The position numbers and the translations under genes were made by a program. Positions 3,015 to 64,000 of a stretch of DNA of 64,000 bases are shown piece by piece (within the stretch, counting starts at the first letter, position 1; the number at the start of each line of letters is the position of its first letter). Location: NCBI GenBank assembly GCA_025056215.1, contig JANWWC010000002.1, forward strand, positions 444,427 through 508,426, given 5' to 3'. Source of the DNA: Cytophagales bacterium. GTDB lineage: Bacteria > Bacteroidota > Bacteroidia > Cytophagales > Flammeovirgaceae. Below the pieces are notes generated by a model, which saw only the letters and a program-made list of their open reading frames with translations, was not told the origin of the DNA and ran no database searches.

Positions 3015-4172
3015 ATGTATCAGAAAACAACCATTTGTCTACTAGGAGGCGGACAACTCGGGAGAATGCTCTTGCAAGCGGGCGTCGATTTGAATATAGA
3101 GTTTCGCGTGTTAGACCACAATGCCAATGCTCCTTGCGCTTCTTTTACAAATCAGTTTGTTTGTGGGAGCCTGACCGATTTTGAAACAGTTTACCAGTTC
3201 GGAAAGAACGCTGAAATAATCACTATTGAAATCGAAAATGTGAACACTAACGCTCTACGATGCTTAGAACAAGAAGGTGTCCGAGTATTTCCACAACCTC
3301 ATCTCATCGAACTCATTCAAGATAAACGATTACAAAAACAATTTTACGAGCAAAACCACTTTCCTACAGCGCCCTTTGTGCTCACCGAAAAAAAAGAAGA
3401 CCTAAAGAACTACCCTGATTTTTTTCCTGCTGTCCACAAATGCGGGAAAGGAGGATATGATGGAAAAGGCGTTAGAATTTTAGAAACTTTCGAAGACTGG
3501 TGCAAAGGTTTTGAACTACCCTCTGTTTTGGAAAAAAAGATTTCTATTTATAAAGAAATCTCCGTTATTGTAGCGCGCAACTCAAATGGAGAAATAAAAG
3601 CATTTCCAGTAGTAGAGTGCGCATATCATCCTACCCAAAACTTAGTAGATTTTTTGATTATGCCAGCAGAAATAGCTAATAAGTTAGAAAAAAGAGCTCA
3701 AGAAATTGCTATCGAACTTATTCAAAAATTAGAACTCGTAGGAATTCTTGCTGTCGAAATGTTTATAGACACTCAAGAAAATATTTTTATTAACGAAGTA
3801 GCTCCTCGCCCTCACAATAGCGGGCACCAAACTATTGAGGGTAATTTTACTTCTCAATACGCTCAACATCTGCGCGCTATTCTAAACCTTCCTTTAGGGA
3901 ATCCTCAACTCAGGGCACCTTCTGCTATGATAAATCTCTTAGGAGAACCTTCTCATGAAGGAGAAGCGGCTTATATAGGATTAGAAAAGGTGCTCCAACT
4001 CGACCAAACCTATGTCCATCTTTACGGAAAACATCAAACAAAACCTTATCGAAAAATGGGGCATATCACCGTTTTAGGAACCAACCGACAACAACTTTTA
4101 GAAAAAATCCATTTTATCAAAGGATTGATAAAAGTAGTGAGCGCTCCAAATCGACAAGTAATCAATCCCTAA
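3015..4172 (+). CDS. purK: 5-(carboxyamino)imidazole ribonucleotide synthase
   Basis: ATP-grasp enzyme that carboxylates AIR to N5-CAIR in purine synthesis. GGGQLGRM at residues 11-18 is the PurK nucleotide-fold start; KCGKGGYDGKGV lies in the ATP-grasp loop, and INEVAPRPHNSGHQTIE is the metal/ATP and substrate signature that separates PurK from PurT. Length of 385 residues is as expected. PurE, the usual partner, is not in the window. The stop overlaps the glf stop by four bases (convergent). Confidence 0.96.
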   Translation: MYQKTTICLLGGGQLGRMLLQAGVDLNIEFRVLDHNANAPCASFTNQFVCGSLTDFETVYQFGKNAEIITIEIENVNTNALRCLEQEGVRVFPQPHLIELIQDKRLQKQFYEQNHFPTAPFVLTEKKEDLKNYPDFFPAVHKCGKGGYDGKGVRILETFEDWCKGFELPSVLEKKISIYKEISVIVARNSNGEIKAFPVVECAYHPTQNLVDFLIMPAEIANKLEKRAQEIAIELIQKLELVGILAVEMFIDTQENIFINEVAPRPHNSGHQTIEGNFTSQYAQHLRAILNLPLGNPQLRAPSAMINLLGEPSHEGEAAYIGLEKVLQLDQTYVHLYGKHQTKPYRKMGHITVLGTNRQQLLEKIHFIKGLIKVVSAPNRQVINP

Positions 4173-5278
4173 AAAGACATTTTTTCCTTTCTGGCTTTTA
4201 CCAGTGCAGAACCAATAATTTGGTGCATATCGTAATAACGATACTCAGCAAGGCGGCCTCCAAAAATCACGTGCGGCAATGATTGAGCAAGTGTTTCGTA
4301 TTTTTTAAAAATAGCATTATTTTTTTCATCGTTGATAGGATAATAAGGTTCATCTCCTTTTTGCCATTTTTTAGAATATTCCCGCGTGATTACTGTAATA
4401 GGTTGCCTACCAAATTCAAAATGTTTATGTTCAACAATTCGAGTATAAGGCACATTTACATCTGTATAATTTACTTGAGCATTTCCTTGAAAGTTTTCTT
4501 TTTCTAAAATCTCGTGTTCAAAGCGCAAACTTCTATATTCAAGCTCTCCAAACCGATAATCAAAAAACTCGTCTATTTTGCCTGTATAAACAATTTTAGG
4601 TGCTAACTGGTCGAAATAACTTTTTTCTGAAAAATAATCTGTATTTAGTCGTACTTCTATCCCAGCTAACAATCCTTCAGTGAGTCTATTGTAACCGCCT
4701 ATCGGGATTCCTTGATAACGGTCATTAAAATAGTTATTATCGTACGTAAAGCGAACAGGCAAGCGTTTGATAATAAACGGAGGAAGTTCTTTACACGATT
4801 TTCCCCACTGTTTTTCAGTGTATCCTTTAATGAGCTTTTCAAAAATATCTCTTCCTACCAAAGAAATGGCTTGCTCTTCTAAGTTCCTGGGTTGGGTAAT
4901 CCCTGCCTCTCGAATTTGTTCTTGTATTTTAGCTTGTGCTTCTTCAGGTGTAATCACACCCCACATTTGGTGAAATGTATTCATATTGAAGGGAAGATTA
5001 TACACCTTTCCTTGAAAAATAGCAGTAGGCGCATGAATGTAATGATTGAAACTCACAAACTGATTGACATAATCCCAAATTTCTTTATCATTCGTGTGAA
5101 AGATATGTGGACCATACCAATGAACGTTAATCCCTTCTATTTCTTTGCAATACGTATTTCCACCGATGTGTGGTCTTCGGTCTATCACTAAACATTTTTT
5201 TCCGGCATTAGTCATTTCGCGAGCGAATACAGCGCCAAATAATCCTGCGCCCACAATCAGATAATCGTATGAATGCAT
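4169..5278 (-). CDS. glf: UDP-galactopyranose mutase
   Basis: Flavoenzyme that interconverts UDP-galactopyranose and UDP-galactofuranose, supplying Galf for surface glycans. The FAD Rossmann start (YDYLIVGAGLFGAVFARE) is at residues 4-21; GGNTY and the WYGPHIFHT stretch carry the flavin-contacting residues, and GGYNRLTE plus the C-terminal GGRLAEYRYYDMHQ are diagnostic. Length of 369 residues is typical. Its start overlaps the end of the large YfhO-like membrane gene by 22 bases on the same strand, which makes one operon and suggests that the membrane protein also acts in glycan assembly. Confidence 0.95.
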   Translation of the reverse strand: MHSYDYLIVGAGLFGAVFAREMTNAGKKCLVIDRRPHIGGNTYCKEIEGINVHWYGPHIFHTNDKEIWDYVNQFVSFNHYIHAPTAIFQGKVYNLPFNMNTFHQMWGVITPEEAQAKIQEQIREAGITQPRNLEEQAISLVGRDIFEKLIKGYTEKQWGKSCKELPPFIIKRLPVRFTYDNNYFNDRYQGIPIGGYNRLTEGLLAGIEVRLNTDYFSEKSYFDQLAPKIVYTGKIDEFFDYRFGELEYRSLRFEHEILEKENFQGNAQVNYTDVNVPYTRIVEHKHFEFGRQPITVITREYSKKWQKGDEPYYPINDEKNNAIFKKYETLAQSLPHVIFGGRLAEYRYYDMHQIIGSALVKARKEKMSF

Positions 5279-8069: not shown

Positions 8070-9660
8070 CATAAGCTTGTATAAACTAAAACGAAATAAA
8101 TTTTCTACAACAAAAAAGCAAAATATACTTTTATTCATTTTATTTCTAATGTACTGGTGCTCAATATTACTTTTACATAATCAATGCTCTTGCACGGCTT
8201 TGGGACGAAGAATATTTTTTTAAGGATATTCTGTCACATCCACTACAGATACATCAGAGAAACACCTATCTTACTAACTATCAATCATTTGGGATACGGC
8301 TCTCTTTTCTGGATTGTTAATGCCTTGATTTTTGATATTTCTCCGTCCCACTCGGCTACGCTATGCCGTGCACTGAGTTTATTCTTTACCATACTACCAT
8401 TAAGAATTGTTGTATATCAGGCAATTATTCAAATAAAAATAGCTTGTATTTTATAATACTTTGTCTTCTTTTAGTTCTTCATGGTGGTATGGTAACTGAT
8501 TGGCTGCGAAACCTTAGTTTTTCACTTGCCTTTATTTGCACTACGTTATTATTTATGAGTAATCAATCTACCTTTCTAACCATGTTTTTGATTGGCTTAG
8601 GAGTGTGGGCATTAACTCAATTTTATTTTTCTGTTTTTCGCTGCAATCTTCCATTATTTTTTAAATAACACACCTTTTCAAACTAATACGAATTATTTCA
8701 TACGCGTTATTCTTTCATCATCAGCGGGTTTCTTCTTTGCTAATATTTTTTGTTCATCAACCACAATTTCACGATTTATTGGAAAAATATTTCGTTCGAC
8801 ATTAACACTTTTAACAATGCGAATATCAATTTTGGGGGATAAACTTCATTTTATCCTGTTTGGCTTCCAACAGAAAAATGCTTTCTTGTACGGAAAAATG
8901 GAGTTACTATAAAATTTTTATCATGCGCATGTTATTTACCTTTTTTTAATCTGTTAATTTTTTATAGCCTAACTATCTGATATTCAATACACAAACAAAA
9001 AAAATCAGCTTTTTTCTATCAATATCTGTGTTAACTGTCATTTTATTGATAACGAGTTCGCCTACTTACTTCCATTGGTATTGGCTTCCACTCATTGGAG
9101 TGTATTTAGGTATTTTCTGGGAAATTATAAAATCTCTGCTAATAAATTAACTTCTCTTAATGGTAGCTCCTACCTCATTGTGAAGAACTTACGAGCATAT
9201 TTTGTTGCAAAAAGAGTATATCACCATTTCAGATTACAGAAATAATGCTATCCATTGATATTATACTAACAAATAGCTAATATACTACTCAAAAACTTTG
9301 CATCAATTCTTACTACGTCTTGCCTTTTCTTGATGCGTATGATGCGCCAAACAAATAGAACTTTCGCAAGGGAAAATTATTTCCAGCTACGACGCATATG
9401 CAGCTACTACTGCTTTGCTTCTGCATGAAAATCATCAATATTTGCAAGAAATTTTATCTGATTACAAAAAGGTTTTTATTATTTTGGATAAAAACTCATA
9501 TCGGTATCACATTTTAAAAAATCAGACAATTGAACAAACTCCTCAGGAGTTCATTCAAAGTCGAATACGTGTGCCAATAAGACATTTTCAGGAATACAAT
9601 TGGGGTTATATTTTTATGTTACAAAATTTATCTCTTTATAAAGTATGTGGATGTATATAG
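8070..9660 (+). pseudogene. Frameshifted GT-C/GT39-like membrane glycosyltransferase
   Basis: No intact gene lies here, yet stretches of all three frames read as one broken membrane protein in correct order: a first TM helix (about 8090-8150), then INALARLWDEEYFFKDILSH (from 8186, the loop typical of GT39-like enzymes with its D-E pair), a shift into HLGYGSLFWIVNALIFD, a shift back into a TM-rich part to 8668, a further shift carrying TM helices to about 8920, then SPTYFHWYWLPLIGVYLGIF near 9055-9115, and finally ISSYDAYAATTALLLHENHQ running into a soluble tail ending 9660. At least four frame changes and several stops are needed. Its 3' end overlaps the start of the next gene by 16 bases, as if once part of the same operon. 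Confidence 0.75.
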
Positions 9661-55721: not shown

Positions 55722-56699
55722 ATGGAAATCATCAGACGTCCCCGAAGGAATCGCGTTTCGAGTGCAATACGCGCTTTAGTAGAGGAAACAACGCTTTCTA
55801 CCAACGATTTGATTTATCCGATATTCGTACAAGAAGGAAAGCAACAGCAATGGGAAATTGCTTCTATGCCAGGAATTTATCGATTTTCGCCCGACAGGTT
55901 GCTTTTTGAAATAGAAGAATGTATGAACATAGGCATTCGAGCAATTTGCCTATTCCCGAACATCTCTGAAGACAAAAAAGACAAAATAGGAAGTGAAGGT
56001 TGCAATCCGGAAGGATTATATCCTTCTACTATTCGAAGTATTAAAGCGCGCTTTCCAGAGCTCTGTATTATGACGGACGTAGCATTAGACCCTTATAGTT
56101 CTGACGGACATGATGGAATCTTTCGAGACGGAAAAATTTTGAACGATGAAACAGTAGAAATTTTAGGAAAAATGGCTCTTATACAAGCAGAAGCGGGCGC
56201 CGATTTGATCGGTCCTTCTGATATGATGGACGGAAGAGTGCAACATATCAGGCAAGTACTCGACCAGCACGGATTTATAGACGTAGGAATTATTTCTTAT
56301 ACTGCCAAATATGCAAGTGCTTTTTACGGGCCTTTTCGCGATGCGCTTCAATCGGCTCCTAAGCAAGGCGACAAAAAAACTTATCAAATGAACCCTGCTA
56401 ACGCTAAAGAAGCCCTTTTAGAAGCAGAACTCGATTTTCAGGAAGGAGCGGATATACTCATGGTCAAACCTGCTCTTGCTTATTTAGACATCATTTATCG
56501 ATTAAAAGAAAAATTTTGCATTCCTATTGCTGCTTACAACGTGAGCGGGGAGTACGCGATGATAAAAGGAGCTGCTCGCTTAGGTTGGCTAGATGAGCAA
56601 AAATGCATGCTCGAAACTTTGTTAAGCATCAAACGAGCAGGAGCCGATATTATTTTGAGTTATTTTGCCAAAGAAGTAGCTTTAATTTTAAAGCACTAA
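55722..56699 (+). CDS. hemB: Delta-aminolevulinic acid dehydratase (porphobilinogen synthase)
   Basis: Condenses two ALA molecules in heme synthesis. RPRRNRVSSAIRALVEETTLSTNDLIYPIF start; the active-site lysines lie in AYTAKYASAFYGPFRDAL-type and ILMVKPALAYLDII-type loops; the metal region is IMTDVALDPYSSDGHDGIF, which has no CxC zinc triad and so fits the Mg-type enzyme. 325 residues is normal. Overlaps the convergent hisS by four bases. Confidence 0.96.
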   Translation: MEIIRRPRRNRVSSAIRALVEETTLSTNDLIYPIFVQEGKQQQWEIASMPGIYRFSPDRLLFEIEECMNIGIRAICLFPNISEDKKDKIGSEGCNPEGLYPSTIRSIKARFPELCIMTDVALDPYSSDGHDGIFRDGKILNDETVEILGKMALIQAEAGADLIGPSDMMDGRVQHIRQVLDQHGFIDVGIISYTAKYASAFYGPFRDALQSAPKQGDKKTYQMNPANAKEALLEAELDFQEGADILMVKPALAYLDIIYRLKEKFCIPIAAYNVSGEYAMIKGAARLGWLDEQKCMLETLLSIKRAGADIILSYFAKEVALILKH

Positions 56700-58069
56700 T
56701 GAGTTTCCAAAAAGGTTACCAATTCATGAGCAAAAAGTTGAATTTGATTGCCAGAGGTCATGTTTTTGAGAGTTACTTTGTTTTCAGCTATTTCATTACC
56801 GCCGGCTAGTACTACCCACTGCACTCTTTTGGTGTTTGCATAATCGAGTTGTTTTTTAAGTTTTACAGCGTCAGGATACATTTCAGCAGACTTACCTATT
56901 TTGCGAACTGCGTACATCAGTGGAAGCAAATAGCGAAACGATGCCTCATCAAATTGCGTAAACAGAACTTCTGTAGTTTTTTGCACTGTCTCGGGAAATA
57001 AATTGAGTTCGTTCATAACATCGTATAGTCTGTCTACTCCAAACGAAAAGCCTACTCCCGAAACGCCTTCTAACCCAAATGTTCCTGTTAAATTATCGTA
57101 TCTTCCGCCTCCGCTGATACTTCCTATTTGAACATTATTGACCTTTACTTCAAAAATAGTACCTGTGTAATAGGTTAAGCCTCGCGCTAAAGTCAGGTCG
57201 AGTTGTACATGTTGGAGAGGTAGGCCTGCCCATTCAGACCATTCTAATATGGTGCGCATTTCAGAAATTCCTATTTTACCGATAGCCGAGTCTCCAAAAA
57301 AAGAAGTTAAAAAAGAAAGTTTTTCAGAATTGTCTCCAAAAAACTGCAAAACAGGTTCTAATGCTTCGAGCGTTTGAGAAGAAAATCCGCGGGCAAGTAG
57401 CTCTTTTTGAACGTTTTCTTTTCCAATTTTTTCGAGTTTATCGATTGTTGCGCACAAGTCTCCTTCTTTTCCGCTCGCTCCTATTTTTTCTGCAATGCCT
57501 GCCAAAATTTTTCGATGATTAATTTTAATGGTATAATCGCAAATCGAGAGTTTTTGAAGCGTCTCGGTTATCATGCTTATAATTTCGACTTCACAAAGTA
57601 GCGAGTTCGTTCCGATAACATCGGCGTCGCATTGATAAAATTCGCGATAGCGACCTTTTTGCGGACGGTCGGCGCGCCATACAGGTTGAATTTGGTAGCG
57701 CTTAAAAGGAAACGTAATCTCATGACGATTCATCACTACATAACGCGCAAAAGGAACTGTTAGGTCATAACGAAGTCCTTTTTCAGCTATCTTAGGCAAC
57801 ATTTTTTTGGCTCCTTGCCGAAAATCCTCCTCTTTTACTTCTGCTAAATAGTCGCCAGAATTCAGAATCTTGAATAGAAGTTGATCGCCCTCTTCTCCGT
57901 ACTTACCCATTAAAACCGAAAGATTTTCCATAGCAGGTGTTTCAATAGGTTGAAATCCATGCTTTGTAAACACTTCTCTGATAGTATCAAAAATAAAGTT
58001 GCGCCTATTCATTTGAAGAGTGCCAAAATCGCGCGTGCCTTTGGGTAAGCTTGGTTTTGTAGTTCCCAT
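56696..58069 (-). CDS. hisS: Histidyl-tRNA synthetase
   Basis: Class II aminoacyl-tRNA synthetase. Motif 1-like FQPIETPAMENLS, motif 2 around YDLTVPFARYVVMN ... FKRYQIQPVWRADRPQKGRYREFYQCDAD, the histidine motif LARGLTYYTGTIFEV and motif 3 GGGRYDNLTG, then a C-terminal anticodon-binding domain. The ATG at 58069 is preferred over a TTG 21 bases upstream (457 residues). Its likely promoter (CACCTTTG at 58088-58095, one base off consensus) sits immediately beyond the terminator of the tracrRNA, so the two units are packed tightly. Confidence 0.96.
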   Translation of the reverse strand: MGTTKPSLPKGTRDFGTLQMNRRNFIFDTIREVFTKHGFQPIETPAMENLSVLMGKYGEEGDQLLFKILNSGDYLAEVKEEDFRQGAKKMLPKIAEKGLRYDLTVPFARYVVMNRHEITFPFKRYQIQPVWRADRPQKGRYREFYQCDADVIGTNSLLCEVEIISMITETLQKLSICDYTIKINHRKILAGIAEKIGASGKEGDLCATIDKLEKIGKENVQKELLARGFSSQTLEALEPVLQFFGDNSEKLSFLTSFFGDSAIGKIGISEMRTILEWSEWAGLPLQHVQLDLTLARGLTYYTGTIFEVKVNNVQIGSISGGGRYDNLTGTFGLEGVSGVGFSFGVDRLYDVMNELNLFPETVQKTTEVLFTQFDEASFRYLLPLMYAVRKIGKSAEMYPDAVKLKKQLDYANTKRVQWVVLAGGNEIAENKVTLKNMTSGNQIQLFAHELVTFLETH

Positions 58070-58123: not shown

Positions 58124-58151
58124 AAAAAAGCCCCATCGAAGAACGTGGGGC
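58124..58151 (-). terminator. Intrinsic terminator ending the tracrRNA
   Basis: GCCCCA (58130-58135) pairs with TGGGGC (58146-58151); on the minus strand the stem is followed by TTTTTTG (58123-58129). No protein gene ends here, which is what led to recognising the RNA gene. Confidence 0.85.
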
Positions 58152-58217
58152 GAGGAATAAAATTCCTGCAGAATGATCTTTATTGTGATAAGCTCAAAAG
58201 AAAGTTTTCGCAATTTT
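58124..58217 (-). ncRNA. tracrRNA of the type II-C CRISPR system
   Basis: On the minus strand in the gap between hisS and cas9. It has an anti-repeat: AAAACTTTCTTTTGA (58194-58208) is an exact 15-nt match to the repeat's complement, next a GC pairing (AGC), a bulge, and then CACAAT (58182-58187), which pairs with the first six repeat bases GTTGTG (one G-U). After it a small GGAAT-TTT-ATTCC hairpin, then the terminator stem GCCCCA/TGGGGC with six Ts. The 5' end is set by the likely promoter at 58223-58255. This fold is that of a II-C guide RNA. Length about 94 nt. A search for the RNA in RNA-seq would settle the ends. Confidence 0.85.
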
Positions 58218-58222
58218 AAGAA

Positions 58223-58255
58223 AAAAATTATCTTGCAACAAGAGTTTAACACAAA
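58223..58255 (-). promoter_or_regulatory. Candidate tracrRNA promoter
   Basis: On the minus strand TTTG (58252-58255), 21 bases, then TAATTTTT (58223-58230): one mismatch to TAnnTTTG. Its predicted start falls just ahead of the anti-repeat. On the plus strand, TTTT (58205-58208), N20, TATCTTGC (58229-58236) could be the cas9 promoter, overlapping the tracrRNA -7 box. Confidence 0.45.
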
Positions 58256-58259
58256 AAAT

Positions 58260-61200
58260 ATGGAAATACAAAAAAGTATCACAGAAAACCACGACATCGT
58301 ATTTGGAATAGACATAGGTTTTACTTCTATCGGATGGGCTGTGGTTTCAAAAAAGCAGCAAAAAATACTAGGAAGTGGATGTTATATCTTTCCAGTAGGT
58401 GTAAATGAGGATAGTTATAACAAAAATTACGCTGAAGAATCTAAAAATCAAACAAGAAGATTGGCAAGAAGTCTTCGAAGAAGGCTTTTTCGAAGAAAGT
58501 TGCGCGTAGTACAACTCTTATTTTTGTTAGAAGAAAACGGATTTTTTGCTTCTATTAAAAAACCTCAAAACCTTCGAGAGCAATACAAAAACCTGCCTAA
58601 AGCTGAGCGCTCGAGCTTGCTCAAAAAATTTTCGGCAGAAATTCAGCAATACATGCATCAAAACGGGTTTCTGAGCACCGATATTTATAGCTGGCGCGCT
58701 CAAGCACTCGATACTCGTATTGAACTCTGGCAATTAGGGCTCATTTTTCTGCAGTTCGCCAAACGAAGAGGCTTTAAAAGCAATCGAAAAGAAAAAACTG
58801 ACGAAAAAAAGAAAGGAGAAATTGAAAAAGCAATTTCTGCTCTTAAAGAAGAAATGCAAAAAGAAAACGTTCGAACGCTCGGAGAATACTTTTATAAGCT
58901 TATTTGCAAAAGTCCTCTTACAAACCGACAAGGAAAAAAAGACAGACCTATACAAAGAATACGCAATTGCTACACCGAAAGAAAGATGTATGAAGACGAA
59001 TTTGAAGCAATCTGGGAAGCACAAAAAAAATATTACCCTGATAAATTATCGGGCGATAAAAGTGGAGATGTGCGAAACTCGGAATTTTGCAAAACTTTGT
59101 ATTATCAAATTAAAAACTGGTGCATTTTTTTTCAACGCCCGCTCAAATCTCAAAAAAAATTAGTCGGGAATTGTACATTTTTACCTCACAAAAAAAGGTG
59201 TCCTATTGCTGCACTTGAATTTCAGGAATTTCGCATTTGGCAATTCTTAGGAAACCTTAGAATTACTACTACCTCTAAAAGAGAAGCTAAAAAAGCTCAA
59301 AATCAGCTTTCGTTATTTGAATCCCGCCCTCGCTACAATGAACCGCTCTCTTTAGAAGAAAAAAAGAAGCTCGCTCAACTTTTTTCTGAAAAAGAAAAAG
59401 TTACTATCAGCGACATTAAAAAGGAATTAGGATACGAAAACGCAAAATTCTCTGCCGAAAATATCGATTACAAAGGGAATGTTGTAAGAGTTGCCTTTAA
59501 AAAAGCATTCGGCAACAAGGACTTCGAAGAAATGGAAAAAGAATATAAACAAAAAGAAGCCCTCGACGAACAAAACTGTTTTAAAACATCAGAGCGCTTC
59601 AAAACCAAATTTTATAAACTCTGGAATGCTTTGCTCTTTGCTGATTCTACTTCATGGCTCCAAGAGTATGCCAAAAAGTTAGGATATTCTGAGCAACAAG
59701 CAGAAGAATATTCTAAAATTTTCCTACCAGAAGGATACGCATCTCTCTCTTTGGAAGCAATTCGCTCCATCTTGGCTTATATGAAAGAAGGATACGAATA
59801 TCACGAGGCTTGTATGTACGCAGGCTTTCACCATTCTAAACAAGAAATTCCCGTAAAAGGCAAAATTTCACCTAAAGACATTCCTAACCTAAGAGCTCCT
59901 ATCGTACAAAAGGCTATTTGTGAAACGGCTCGTTTGGTCAACCATTTAGTAAAAAAATTTGGAGAACCCGACCACATCAGAGTAGAAATGGCAAGGGAAT
60001 TCAAACAACCTAAAAGCGAACGAGAAAAGAGAGCAAGAAAAAACTACGAAATCAAAAAAAGAAGAGAAGAATACGTAGAATTACTCAAAAAGTACAAGCC
60101 AGATTGGAATATTCATCCCAAAAGTGATATTATTAAAAAGTTTGAACTGTGGCTCGAACTCGGTCTCGATGATGGAGAACTTAAAAACAAACTTATAGAC
60201 GATAGAAAGATTAATGAGTTTAAAAAATTTGCCAAAAAAGTAAACTCCAAAGACAAAGAAAAATATGCCCTTTGGCTCGAATGCGGACGAGTCTCTCCTT
60301 ACACAGGCAAAACCATCAGCCTTACCAAGCTCTTCAGCTCTGACATCGAAATTGAGCACATCATCCCTTACTCGCTTTCAGGAGATGACTCTATGACCAA
60401 CAAAACCATTGCCGAACGCGAAGAAAACGCTAAAAAAGGAAATCTCACAGCCTTCGCCTATATGCAATCCAAAGGAAAAAAAGAGCTCGACGAGTATATC
60501 GAAAGAATATCCGCATTTCCTAAATATAAACAAAAATACTTTCTGGCAAAAGAAGCTTCTGACGAATTCGCTAACGTAGATTTTCAGAGTACGGCTTATA
60601 TTGCCAAAGAACTCACTAAGCTTTTAAAATTGGTTTGTAAGAATGTCTACATTACCAACGGGAAAGCAACTGCCATCATCAGAAGGCATTGGGGTTTGCA
60701 CAATCTACTTCAAGAACTTTGGCAAGAACAAAACCTTTCTCAAGAACTACTCAGCTCCAACGAATCTTCTGACAATAAAACTGCACAGGAAGAAAAAATG
60801 AGAGAAGATCACAGACATCACGCCATCGATGCGATTGTAATTGCTCTTACCTCCCAAAGTATCTTCAATAAACTTGCGCGAGAAGCACAATTTTCCTCCT
60901 CAGGACATATGCGAGTAAAAGAAATTCCTTTGCCATGGGGAACTTTGAACTCATTCAGAAACGATGTAAACAAAAGCGTTGCCAATATTTTGGTAGCTTT
61001 CAGAAACAAAAAAAGGCTTCTTTCCAAAAAGAAAATTAAAAAAGGCAACTCTGTTACAATTTCGATCGTTCCTAGAGATAAATTGCACGCCGAAACCAAC
61101 TACGGCTTTGTGCAACTTCCCTGTGGTAGAAAGGGATACGTACAAAGAAAACCTTTAGCAGATTACTTTAATGACGTTGAAAATGAAGAAAAATCAGTGA

Positions 61201-61871
61201 AAAAGTGCGAAGCAATCGTAGATAGAAAAATAGCCAACATTCTTTTAGAACGCTTAAGAAATTACGATTTTAATGGAAAACGAGCTTTCTCTCAAGAAGC
61301 CATCCAAAAAGAACCCGTCCTGACCTATTCCAAAAAAGGCACTCCTAACCCTATCTACAAAGTGCGATTTTTTGTAGAAAGTAACACTGCTATACCACTC
61401 AAGCCTCATGAAAATCCTAAATTGTATGTAGAGCCTGATAACAACTACATGATGGCAATTTATAGAGATCCTCAAACCGATGAGCGCGTTTCTGAAATCG
61501 TTACTTTTATCGAAGCATTTAACCGAAAAAAAAGAGGAGAAGCAATTTTCGAACCTATTAAAAAGAAAGTAGTTCAGAAAAGAGAAATAGAGCTTCCTTT
61601 ATGGCTTACGCTTTCTAAAAAAGACATGTTCGTGCTCTACGACAATCATCCAGAAGAAATAGATTGGAACAATCCAGCAGATATTTTCAACCGTCTCTAT
61701 TACGTAATAAAAATGTCGGGAAATAACATCTATCTTGGCAAACATCACATCGCTAAAATTAATGCTGACAGAGATAAATTTCCTATAAAAAAGCTAATTA
61801 GCAGTAATAAATTCAAAGGAGTAAAAGTATTTCTAAGTCCGTTGGGAGAAATTGTAAAAAAAGTTGAATAA
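58260..61871 (+). CDS. cas9: CRISPR-associated endonuclease Cas9 (type II-C)
   Basis: RNA-guided double-strand DNA endonuclease; 1203 residues from the ATG at 58260. RuvC-I FGIDIGFTSIGWAVV has Asp18; an Arg-rich bridge helix follows (RRLARSLRRRLFRRKLR, about 62-78), then the recognition lobe (about 80-560). RuvC-II IRVEMARE holds Glu576. HNH carries His700 in IEIEHIIPYSLSGDDSMTNK and the asparagine of the ββα-metal fold in NAKKGN. RuvC-III HRHHAIDA holds His854 and Asp857. The remaining ~340 residues form the WED/PAM-interacting part. All catalytic residues are present. The frame is open to 58173, but that extension would run across the tracrRNA. No csn2 or cas4 follows, which makes it II-C. 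Confidence 0.97.
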   Translation: MEIQKSITENHDIVFGIDIGFTSIGWAVVSKKQQKILGSGCYIFPVGVNEDSYNKNYAEESKNQTRRLARSLRRRLFRRKLRVVQLLFLLEENGFFASIKKPQNLREQYKNLPKAERSSLLKKFSAEIQQYMHQNGFLSTDIYSWRAQALDTRIELWQLGLIFLQFAKRRGFKSNRKEKTDEKKKGEIEKAISALKEEMQKENVRTLGEYFYKLICKSPLTNRQGKKDRPIQRIRNCYTERKMYEDEFEAIWEAQKKYYPDKLSGDKSGDVRNSEFCKTLYYQIKNWCIFFQRPLKSQKKLVGNCTFLPHKKRCPIAALEFQEFRIWQFLGNLRITTTSKREAKKAQNQLSLFESRPRYNEPLSLEEKKKLAQLFSEKEKVTISDIKKELGYENAKFSAENIDYKGNVVRVAFKKAFGNKDFEEMEKEYKQKEALDEQNCFKTSERFKTKFYKLWNALLFADSTSWLQEYAKKLGYSEQQAEEYSKIFLPEGYASLSLEAIRSILAYMKEGYEYHEACMYAGFHHSKQEIPVKGKISPKDIPNLRAPIVQKAICETARLVNHLVKKFGEPDHIRVEMAREFKQPKSEREKRARKNYEIKKRREEYVELLKKYKPDWNIHPKSDIIKKFELWLELGLDDGELKNKLIDDRKINEFKKFAKKVNSKDKEKYALWLECGRVSPYTGKTISLTKLFSSDIEIEHIIPYSLSGDDSMTNKTIAEREENAKKGNLTAFAYMQSKGKKELDEYIERISAFPKYKQKYFLAKEASDEFANVDFQSTAYIAKELTKLLKLVCKNVYITNGKATAIIRRHWGLHNLLQELWQEQNLSQELLSSNESSDNKTAQEEKMREDHRHHAIDAIVIALTSQSIFNKLAREAQFSSSGHMRVKEIPLPWGTLNSFRNDVNKSVANILVAFRNKKRLLSKKKIKKGNSVTISIVPRDKLHAETNYGFVQLPCGRKGYVQRKPLADYFNDVENEEKSVKKCEAIVDRKIANILLERLRNYDFNGKRAFSQEAIQKEPVLTYSKKGTPNPIYKVRFFVESNTAIPLKPHENPKLYVEPDNNYMMAIYRDPQTDERVSEIVTFIEAFNRKKRGEAIFEPIKKKVVQKREIELPLWLTLSKKDMFVLYDNHPEEIDWNNPADIFNRLYYVIKMSGNNIYLGKHHIAKINADRDKFPIKKLISSNKFKGVKVFLSPLGEIVKKVE

Positions 61872-61884
61872 GATTTATGGAAAA

Positions 61885-61923
61885 GCGTTAAAAGTGCATC
61901 TATAATAAAAAAACTTTTAACGC
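61885..61923. repeat. Inverted repeat in the cas9-cas1 gap
   Basis: GCGTTAAAAG (61885-61894) and CTTTTAACGC (61914-61923) pair perfectly around 19 bases; flanking AAAA/TTTT extends it with a one-base bulge. It fills most of the 61-base gap. It could be an mRNA stability hairpin or a weak terminator; the T-run after the second arm is short. Confidence 0.6.
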
Positions 61924-61932
61924 CTTTTCGCC

Positions 61933-62856
61933 ATGATCAAACGAACGCTTTACTTTGGCAATCCCGCCTATCTTTGCAGGCGAGATGCTCAACTGGTGGT
62001 TAGAACGCCGCAAGACGAACAACCCAATCTCAAAAACGAAACAGTTATTCCTATAGAAGACATCGGAGTAGTAATTTTGGACAACGCTCAAGTAACTATC
62101 ACGCAAGCAGCCTTAGAGTCGCTCTTAGAAAACAACGTAGCGCTTATCACATGCGACGCCACTCATCATCCAGTAGGACTTATGCTCCCGCTCGACCGTC
62201 ACCACCGACAAAGTGCCTATTTTCAGGCACAAATTGCTGCTTCTGAGCCTCTCAAAAAACAACTATGGGCACAAACCGTAAAAGCTAAAATTCAAAATCA
62301 AGCTGTACTACTTGAGCGCGCTACCGGCATGAAAGCTACGCGCTTAAGGGAGCTAGCCTCTCAGGTGCGTTCAGGCGATGTGGATAACTGCGAATCAGCC
62401 GCATCGGTGTATTACTGGAAACATTTATTTAGCAAAGCTAACTTACCAGAACCTTTTAAGCGAAACCGAAAAGGACTACCGCCTAACAATTTGCTCAATT
62501 ACATTTATGCTGTCTTAAGAGCTATTGTCGCACGAGGATTGGTCAGCTCCGGGCTACTCCCTACTCTAGGAATCTTTCACCGCAATCAATACAACGCCTA
62601 TTGCTTAGCCGACGATATAATGGAACCCTATCGCCCTTTTGCCGATGCCATCGTCTTGGAAATCGTACTTTCAGGAGAACCTTATGAAGAAATCACTAAA
62701 GAAATTAAATCGAAATTGCTCACTCTCCCAGTTCAAGATATTTACATAGGCGGAGAAAGAAGTCCTCTAATGGTGGGCTTACAACAAACCACTGCATCAT
62801 TAGCGCGATGCTTCGAAGGAAAATCTCGCAAAATTGTATTCCCCGAATGGGTATAA
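61933..62856 (+). CDS. cas1: CRISPR-associated endonuclease Cas1
   Basis: Integrase that adds new spacers together with Cas2. 307 residues. N-terminal beta domain (RTLYFGNPAYL ... VIPIEDIGVVILDN), helical C-terminal domain with the metal-binding residues Glu154 (DNCESA), His216 (LGIFHRN) and Glu231 (DDIMEPYRPFAD), all present. The PIEDIGV-x-VLD and MEPYRP layout is the type II form. Lies 61 bases after cas9 and 27 before cas2, one transcriptional unit. Confidence 0.97.
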   Translation: MIKRTLYFGNPAYLCRRDAQLVVRTPQDEQPNLKNETVIPIEDIGVVILDNAQVTITQAALESLLENNVALITCDATHHPVGLMLPLDRHHRQSAYFQAQIAASEPLKKQLWAQTVKAKIQNQAVLLERATGMKATRLRELASQVRSGDVDNCESAASVYYWKHLFSKANLPEPFKRNRKGLPPNNLLNYIYAVLRAIVARGLVSSGLLPTLGIFHRNQYNAYCLADDIMEPYRPFADAIVLEIVLSGEPYEEITKEIKSKLLTLPVQDIYIGGERSPLMVGLQQTTASLARCFEGKSRKIVFPEWV

Positions 62857-62883
62857 TTGACATAACACTCAAATTTTTTTCAT

Positions 62884-63213
62884 ATGGTTTTCAATGAATA
62901 TAGAATTATGTGGGTTACTGTTTTTTTCGACCTACCTACCAAAACCAAAAAAGACCGCAAGCAATATGAAATATTTCGCAAAAAATTGCTTCGCGATGGC
63001 TTTAGAATGATTCAGTTCTCTGTTTATGCTCGCCACTGCTCCTCAAAAGCTAATGCAGAGGTACACGTCTCTCGCGTAAAATCTTGGCTCCCTCCTAAAG
63101 GACACGTTATCATTTTCACAATTACCGATAAACAATTTGGAATGATGGAAATTTTTCACGCGGGAATGCGCGTAGATACCCCTCCGCCGCCCGAACAACT
63201 GATGCTCTTCTAA
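62884..63213 (+). CDS. cas2: CRISPR-associated endoribonuclease Cas2
   Basis: Structural partner of Cas1 in spacer integration. 109 residues. Ferredoxin-like start with VTVFFDLPTKTKKDRK, the conserved Asp at residue 16, then FRKKLLRDGFRMIQFSVYAR, and a C-terminal beta strand with proline-rich tail PPPPEQLMLF, as in the long type II form. An ATG at 62908 is an alternative. Last cas gene, about 100 bases before the array. Confidence 0.96.
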   Translation: MVFNEYRIMWVTVFFDLPTKTKKDRKQYEIFRKKLLRDGFRMIQFSVYARHCSSKANAEVHVSRVKSWLPPKGHVIIFTITDKQFGMMEIFHAGMRVDTPPPPEQLMLF

Positions 63214-63220
63214 CTCTTTC

Positions 63221-63276
63221 TTAAAATAAAAAACCGCTCAATTACGTGCGTTTTTTTACATCGTAAAAGAGCGGTT
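63221..63276 (-). terminator. Terminator at the cas2-proximal end of the array
   Basis: AACCGCTC (63232-63239) pairs with GAGCGGTT (63269-63276), with a further ACG...CGT inside the loop. On the minus strand the stem is followed by TTTTTTATTTTAAG (63220-63233). On the plus strand no T-run follows. It therefore ends transcripts coming from the array, not the cas operon. Confidence 0.7.
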
Positions 63277-63311: not shown

Positions 63312-64000
63312 GTTGTGCAAATATCACAAAACTTTCTTTTGAAAGCAAACCACAACTTCTCTTTCTATTTCTGTTGGAACTAAAGGTTGTGCAAATATCA
63401 CAAAACTTTCTTTTGAAAGCAAACCACAACCTGGGTCTGTTGAGTTGCTGCAGAAAACCGTTGTGCAAATATCACAAAACTTTCTTTTGAAAGCAAACCA
63501 CAACTGACCTGCTACAAGCAACGTATCCGTGTTGGTTGTGCAAATATCACAAAACTTTCTTTTGAAAGCAAACCACAACAGTGGAGTGGAGTTGCCACAC
63601 TAGAATCAGGTTGTGCAAATATCACAAAACTTTCTTTTGAAAGCAAACCACAACTAGCAGGTCAGTAGGGCCGAAGGCGTGATGGTTGTGCAAATATCAC
63701 AAAACTTTCTTTTGAAAGCAAACCACAACATAACAAGTTTAATACACTCGTAAAAATTAGTTGTGCAAATATCACAAAACTTTCTTTTGAAAGCAAACCA
63801 CAACGTCGCGCTCGAGTCCGCTCGGAGAAGATAGGTTGTGCAAATATCACAAAACTTTCTTTTGAAAGCAAACCACAACAGAGATATTAAACGAATGCGA
63901 AGTAGCTGAGTTGTGCAAATATCACAAAACTTTCTTTTGAAAGCAAACCACAACTTAAAAAAAATAATTAGGAGATACATAAAAGTTGTGCAAATATCAC
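63312..64000 (-). CRISPR. Type II-C CRISPR array, nine full repeats plus a tenth cut by the window
   Basis: Repeats of 45 bp, all nine full copies identical, start at 63312, 63386, 63460, 63535, 63610, 63685, 63760, 63835 and 63910; the tenth, from 63985, is cut at the edge. Spacers are 29, 29 and then 30 bases each, all different. The repeat's ends are inverted (GTTGTG ... CACAAC) and it holds an inner CTTTC-TTTT-GAAAG hairpin. In the minus direction each reads GTTGTGG-TTTG-N20-GATATTTG-CACAAC, which resembles a Bacteroidota promoter ending at the spacer; crRNA = spacer followed by the next GTTGTGG... part pairs with the tracrRNA. The leader end is therefore to the right, outside the window. 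Confidence 0.97.

What the first reader, a model, noticed from the sequence alone, without database searches (positions are those of the whole stretch)
58124..58217. Minus-strand tracrRNA in the hisS-cas9 gap
A 15-nt exact match to the repeat, a second pairing block matching the repeat's first six bases, a small hairpin and an oligo-U terminator together give a complete tracrRNA. It is divergent from cas9, so it is missed by protein-based annotation, and it defines the guide architecture of this Cas9: lower stem GUUGUG/CACAAU, an internal bulge, upper stem with AAAACUUUCUUUUGA, then hairpin and terminator.
Basis: partly seen in the sequence, partly recalled or inferred. Interest (0 to 1): 0.75.

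Follow-up and report, generated by a model that had tools for sequence, protein, structure and literature searches.

The report
Predicted tracrRNA of a CRISPR-Cas9 system
Beside a CRISPR-Cas9 immune locus, on the strand opposite the cas9 gene, lies a short sequence predicted to make the helper RNA that would pair with the CRISPR repeats and arm Cas9; it looks like an ordinary part of such systems, and related loci carry a similar stretch in the same place.

Summary
The 190-bp gap between hisS and cas9 carries, on the minus strand, a 15-nt perfect complement of the CRISPR repeat (58194-58208), a second 8-bp complement (58182-58189), two small stem-loops and a G+C-rich hairpin ending in U6. The repeat pairs with this strand better than with any of 1000 shuffles; the plus strand is at the shuffle mean. 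Among 35 non-redundant loci, the window included, its repeat and tracrRNA rank first for each other. A covariance model from relatives, window left out, hits it at 69.4 bits; the next genome hit has 22.9. In 47 of 50 named array-bearing Cas9 loci an anti-repeat-like stretch lies divergently upstream of cas9. So this is very probably the tracrRNA of a type II-C system; RNA evidence was not available. The array likely reads on the minus strand toward cas2, and each 45-nt repeat likely carries a promoter, as proposed for Flavobacterium (passages). New member of a known kind. A stranger lead lies in two relatives, not in the window: a solo repeat whose 12-nt seed matches DNA just upstream.

The parts
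58124..58217 (-). predicted tracrRNA (5' end uncertain, about 58205-58220 by inference)
   Evidence: repeat duplex vs shuffles, cofold, covariance model hit 58193-58125, 69.4 bits
58194..58208 (-). upper-stem anti-repeat AAAACTTTCTTTTGA, 15-nt exact complement of the repeat
58182..58189 (-). lower-stem anti-repeat AUCACAAU, 8 bp with GUUGUGGU of the repeat
   Evidence: changes in step with the repeat in L023 and L037
58170..58179 (-). nexus-like mini-hairpin AGA-UCAU-UCU
   Evidence: cofold; AAAGATnATTCT invariant in 12 sequences from 11 relatives chosen by that motif
58153..58167 (-). stem-loop AGGAAU-UUU-AUUCCU
   Evidence: cofold; in relatives the stem letters differ from the window's and still pair, with exceptions
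58124..58151 (-). terminator hairpin GCCCCACG-UUCUU-CG(A)UGGGGC followed by U6
   Evidence: G+C hairpin plus T tract in the 12 relative sequences; not listed by the generic scan
58211..58255 (-). candidate tracrRNA promoters (two alternatives): TTTG 58252-58255 / N21 / TAATTTTT 58223-58230, or TTG 58239-58241 / N20 / TAAAATTG 58211-58218
   Evidence: read by eye from the sequence; many relatives show TAnnTTTG-like boxes before the anti-repeat (by eye, not counted); weak matches, no control
58260..61871 (+). cas9, 1203 aa
   Evidence: TIGR01865, 562.7 bits; alignment A1
61933..62856 (+). cas1, type II (TIGR03639)
62884..63213 (+). cas2 (TIGR01573)
63232..63276 (-). hairpin AACCGCTC...GAGCGGTT followed by T6, reading out of the array: likely terminator of array transcription
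   Evidence: fold; not listed by the generic scan (0 found)
63312..64000 (-). CRISPR array, 45-nt repeat, 29-30-nt spacers, 9 whole repeats and a partial tenth; the contig ends here, the rest is probably on contig C16
56696..58069 (-). hisS (flanking gene, not part of the system; start codon assumed at 58069)
   Evidence: TIGR00442

Best explanation
The minus strand at 58124-58217 holds a 15-nt and an 8-nt complement of the CRISPR repeat followed by a conserved hairpin-terminator module, and it is predicted to be transcribed as the tracrRNA that would pair with each crRNA repeat and load Cas9 of this type II-C system. The array is read on the minus strand, toward cas2 (inferred from which repeat strand the anti-repeat complements, from the G+C hairpin with T6 at the cas2 end, and from the altered repeat at the far end, which suggests that end is the oldest). 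Each 45-nt repeat likely carries its own promoter (TTTG at repeat 8-11, 20 nt, GATATTTG at 32-39; one mismatch to TAnnTTTG), so transcripts would start at about the first spacer base and run into the next repeat, whose first 29-34 nt would pair with the tracrRNA. RNase III would then trim the duplex and Cas9 would hold the guide by the mini-hairpin, stem-loop and terminator. Shown here: sequence, complementarity, conservation and position. Inferred: transcription, ends, processing, Cas9 binding.
For: Duplex with the repeat stronger than in all 1000 shuffles, on the minus strand only; 15-mer found once in the genome outside the repeats; window repeat and window tracrRNA rank first for each other among 35 non-redundant loci (window included), -30.7 against a non-cognate mean of -15.3 kcal/mol, and 33 of 35 rank first by row and 33 of 35 by column; model R1 from 12 relative sequences without the window hits 58193-58125 at 69.4 bits, E 2.1e-12 genome-wide, next best 22.9 bits, E 0.17; divergent upstream position in 47 of 50 named array-bearing loci; lower stem changes in step with the repeat (GUUGUG/CACAAU here, GUUGUA/UACAAU in L037, GCUGUG/CAUAGU in L023); cas9, cas1 and cas2 open and recognised.
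Against: No RNA data. Both candidate tracrRNA promoters are weak matches read by eye. The anti-repeat of most relatives was picked by its fit to their own repeat, and the model's relatives were picked by a motif seen in the window, so searches are partly circular. RNAalifold's covariation term on the 12 sequences is small (-0.38; 6 of 14 pairs have double changes, several cells are broken) and the mini-hairpin never varies, so it gives no covariation evidence. The repeat promoter motif has one more forward match and one reverse match of equal quality in the window repeat, and 6% of the repeat's shuffles have a match; 3 of 6 long repeats lack it. No Rfam family matches.
Confidence: 0.95

Rival explanations
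1. The match is a decayed solo repeat or an anti-repeat relic that no longer makes a working tracrRNA.
For: The main pairing is two blocks of 15 and 8 nt out of a 45-nt repeat; promoter matches are weak.
Against: The orientation is that of an anti-repeat with respect to the array's likely transcript; the hairpin-terminator module next to it is shared with relatives; the 9 whole window repeats and 3 whole repeats on C16 are identical, and cas1, cas2 and cas9 are open, as expected for a system in use.
Confidence: 0.03
2. The hairpin with U6 is a leader attenuator or plain terminator belonging to hisS, and the anti-repeat is coincidental.
For: The assumed hisS start lies 54 nt downstream on the same strand, so the hairpin sits in its upstream region.
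Against: No Rfam family matches the window at gathering score; the same module is found divergently upstream of cas9 in relatives; anti-repeat pairing exceeds all 1000 shuffles. It may still also insulate hisS. The genes downstream of the module in relatives were not examined.
Confidence: 0.01
3. crRNAs are made from one long precursor started outside the array on contig C16, and the repeat-embedded promoter is illusory.
For: The window repeat matches TAnnTTTG only with one mismatch, and a reverse-direction match of the same quality exists; a 2016 study found no promoter in Riemerella II-C repeats (PMC5006608, passages).
Against: In 37 non-redundant repeats TTG stands at 9-11 in 31 and TA at 31-32 in 26, against shuffle means of 2.9 and 4.0; repeat promoters are proposed, with some RNA reads, for F. 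columnare and F. psychrophilum (PMC8092290, PMC10309648, passages). This rival concerns the crRNAs and is compatible with the tracrRNA reading.
Confidence: 0.3

Closest known systems
Type II-C tracrRNAs of Flavobacterium columnare and F. psychrophilum
   Same: tracrRNA beside cas9, cas9-cas1-cas2 locus, array read toward the leader, proposed repeat promoters (passages of PMC8092290 and PMC10309648; the F. columnare tracrRNA is called putative and not validated there)
   Different: 36-nt repeat in F. columnare and a GGC-UAUAU-GCC mini-hairpin in the Flavobacterium loci seen here (by eye); the window has a 45-nt repeat and an AGA-UCAU-UCU mini-hairpin
Riemerella anatipestifer CRISPR1 anti-repeat
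   Same: long repeat (47 nt) and an anti-repeat upstream of cas9 (PMC5006608, passages)
   Different: that anti-repeat is given as 16 nt; the window adds a 15-bp upper stem
tracrRNA-like modules in L005, L006, L007, L022, L023, L024, L025, L029, L037, L106 and L107
   Same: AATAAAGATnATTCT-like core, stem-loop, G+C terminator, upstream of and divergent from a cas9-like gene (L029 by eye; L024 has a second copy away from cas9)
   Different: stem letters and anti-repeat letters differ; an array is on the fetched stretch for L022, L023, L024, L037 and L106, and there the own tracrRNA ranks first in 4 of 5 (L022 ranks fifth)
Clade X guide RNAs of a published Cas9 catalogue
   Same: repeats of 45-50 bp (PMC7606464, passages); clade membership of this Cas9 not tested
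   Different: clade X duplexes are described as typically without bulges; the window's has an internal loop and a bulge

Membership tests
tracrRNA of a type II CRISPR system | anti-repeat complementary to the cognate CRISPR repeat | tested here: met
tracrRNA of a type II CRISPR system | encoded next to cas9 and array, outside the array | tested here: met
   190-bp hisS-cas9 gap
tracrRNA of a type II CRISPR system | 3' hairpins and Rho-independent terminator on the anti-repeat strand | tested here: met
   folds and model; the generic scan did not list it
tracrRNA of a type II CRISPR system | transcribed, co-processed with crRNA and bound by Cas9 | not testable with these tools
   no RNA data
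CRISPR-Cas type II-C | Cas9 with RuvC and HNH nuclease motifs | tested here: met
   TIGR01865 562.7 bits; D18 nearly invariant, E576, H700, H854, D857 invariant in A1; which residues are catalytic is recalled
CRISPR-Cas type II-C | only cas1 and cas2 beside cas9; no csn2 or cas4 in the operon | tested here: met
   the long plus-strand ORFs of 58260-63213 are cas9, cas1, cas2; rest of the genome not searched for csn2 or cas4
CRISPR-Cas type II-C | array read toward the leader from promoters in the repeats | tested here: inconclusive
   orientation by inference; promoter motif has one mismatch, also a reverse match
any Rfam family | match at gathering score | tested here: not met
   0 matches in the window; that Rfam covers few tracrRNA groups is recalled

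The most novel reading that the evidence does not exclude
The 45-nt repeat is a complete one-piece promoter cassette: TTTG-N20-GATATTTG puts the start site at the repeat-spacer border, so every crRNA is born separately with its full 29-30-nt spacer at the 5' end. In 36-nt relatives the -7 box would run into the spacer and start the guide several nt inside it. Repeat length in Bacteroidota-type II-C systems would then set guide length.
Probability: 0.3. Interest if true: 0.45.

Novelty: new member of a known kind. Interest (0 to 1): 0.25.

Why it matters
It completes the annotation of a Cas9 whose best listed database relative is only 41% identical with its predicted guide RNA, which is what one needs to assay it. 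It also describes a tracrRNA module shared by 11 relatives that Rfam did not match here, and gives a concrete start-site prediction that would test whether repeat length sets guide length.

Tried and rejected
Plus-strand tracrRNA: the duplex of the repeat with the plus strand is at the shuffle mean, rejected. Generic promoter and terminator scans listed nothing in either stretch. Protospacers: 3 exact patterns (25, 25 and 24 nt) touching 4 of the 9 window spacers gave 0 matches in viral contigs (the first pattern spans two overlapping spacers); the other 5 window spacers and the C16 spacers were not searched, so no PAM is established. Terminal repeat: its one changed base (first base of the repeat) lowers the computed duplex only from -31.4 to -30.1 kcal/mol. 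A 9-nt match of the sequence before the terminal repeat to hisS at 58024 is post hoc and was dropped. MAFFT aligned the terminator hairpins poorly, so a second alignment without the window was used. Orientation of L066, L079 and L101 was corrected by hand. L008's array was left out.

Full report
Observation. The window ends inside a CRISPR array. Reading order: hisS (minus, 56696-58069), a 190-bp gap, cas9 (plus, 58260-61871), cas1, cas2, then the array from 63312. The window reaches the last base of contig C10 of its genome; five more repeats at the end of contig C16 are most simply the rest of the array, and the outermost of them differs from the consensus in its first base. That suggests the far end is the old end, so the leader would lie beside cas2. 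A hairpin with T6 reading out of the array lies at 63276-63232. Both fit transcription toward cas2 on the minus strand.

Is it more than chance? The gap's minus strand pairs with the repeat at -34.1 kcal/mol; 1000 dinucleotide shuffles average -19.5 (sd 2.9) and none is as low. The plus strand is not different from its shuffles (591 of 1000 as low). The 15-nt exact complement is longer than any in 2000 shuffles, of which the longest is 14. In the whole genome the 15-mer occurs only in the repeats and here.

Structure. The cofold (-49.6 kcal/mol with the whole repeat) gives an 8-bp lower stem, a UU/UU internal loop, two G-C pairs, a two-base bulge and the upper stem of 15 bp, extended by weaker pairs. 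Then follow a 3-bp mini-hairpin (58179-58170), a 6-bp stem-loop (58167-58153) and the terminator hairpin with U6 (58151-58124).

Relatives. Of 147 relative genomes searched, 15 (the window's own included) have a Cas9 match at E 1e-30 or better. No shuffle control was run for this count, and scores of 17-21 also occur elsewhere in A+T-rich loci; position and the CACAATAA-like core carry the weight. Two of the three exceptions (L037, L039) show the core upstream of cas9 (by motif or eye), and the third (L098) has its anti-repeat just beyond the limit.

Cognate test. 48 loci have a repeat of 36 nt or more and a tracrRNA candidate; 35 remain after removing repeats 85% alike. The window's repeat prefers its own tracrRNA and the reverse (rank 1 of 35 both ways, -30.7 against a mean of -15.3). 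33 of 35 rank first in rows and 33 of 35 in columns; L022 (5 and 6) and L030 (2 and 2) do not. For most loci the anti-repeat had been picked by its fit to the repeat, so this is partly circular; the window's was given in advance.

Model test. A covariance model from 12 sequences of 11 relatives, window left out, finds 58193-58125 at 69.4 bits, E 4.9e-14 in the window and 2.1e-12 in the genome; the next genome hit is 22.9 bits, E 0.17. The relatives were found by a motif seen in the window, so these E-values overstate independence; the model's calibration is also rough. 6 of 14 model pairs have at least one double change that keeps the pair; the covariation term is small (-0.38). A search for the core (up to 2 mismatches) in 395 genomes of the phylum hit 4, the window's own included; two of the other three lie divergently upstream of a cas9-like gene, and one (G495) is not near a cas9 motif and reads by eye as coding sequence.

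Repeat promoter. In 37 non-redundant repeats TTG stands at 9-11 in 31 and TA at 31-32 in 26, against shuffle means of 2.9 and 4.0. Common descent and Cas1-Cas2 or tracrRNA constraints may add to this. The window's repeat fits TTG-N20-TAnnTTTG with one mismatch; it has a second forward match and one reverse match of equal quality, and 6% of its shuffles match. Of six repeats of 44-47 nt, three fit (window, L022, and L069 at a different place) and three do not (L023, L037, L106; the last was read at 44 nt). Where such a promoter starts is recalled, not computed. Repeat promoters in type II-C arrays are already in print (PMC8092290, PMC10309648, PMC12080349: passages). The TAnnTTTG form inside the repeat was not named in the passages I read; one search for it with CRISPR terms returned 244 papers at three of four terms, 15 listed, and of those 15 only PMC10309648 held the motif, there for the cas9 gene.

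Verdict. A very probable and ordinary tracrRNA, correctly spotted. Its 3' module is shared with 11 relatives. The best-matching solved Cas9 chain is 9ar4_A at 165.4 bits, of 27 distinct sequences listed.

Noticed in passing
L087 about 8530-8613 and L098 about 8378-8493 (minus strand, between tracrRNA and cas9): A solo degenerate repeat outside the array; the 12 nt directly before it match exactly the opposite strand 59 and 91 nt upstream (0 of 1000 region shuffles each), both flanked by GGGAT (PAM-like) and, by eye, at or beside the -35 box of a promoter reading into the solo repeat. This looks like a self-regulating crRNA-like RNA in type II-C. One search gave 4 hits in 52 loci; I set two aside (L027, 18 nt, just beyond its array; L038, 10 nt, the reverse strand of its tracrRNA). 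0 hits in 5 passes with shuffled repeat heads. One review names such RNAs (CreR) for types I and V-A (passages). L057 has a solo repeat without such a seed. None was found in the window.
   Followed up: partly
L022 8367-8416 and 8875-8941; L024 8775-8844 and 13744-13825: Two tracrRNA-like genes in one locus, in L022 with different mini-hairpins (GGC-type and AGA-type); the second L022 copy begins with a 16-nt complement of the 3' end of the repeat.
   Followed up: no
L024 about 8838-8905 and L007 near 4150-4221: The anti-repeat looks split: upper-stem part and lower-stem part are separated by some 35-40 nt holding a partial second copy (by eye; no array was detected for L007).
   Followed up: no
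window spacers at 63505-63534 and 63655-63684: Two spacers overlap by 10 nt on opposite strands, so they probably come from one site of one element (1 of 2000 shuffled sets has such an overlap). Their inferred 3' flanks, GTAGGGCCG and CAAGCAACG, share A3, G4, C8 and G9: a weak PAM lead (NNAG).
   Followed up: partly
window 64000 / contig C16 end: The assembly breaks inside the array: both contigs end within a repeat, so the true number of spacers is unknown. Spacers on C16 are 26-31 nt.
   Followed up: partly
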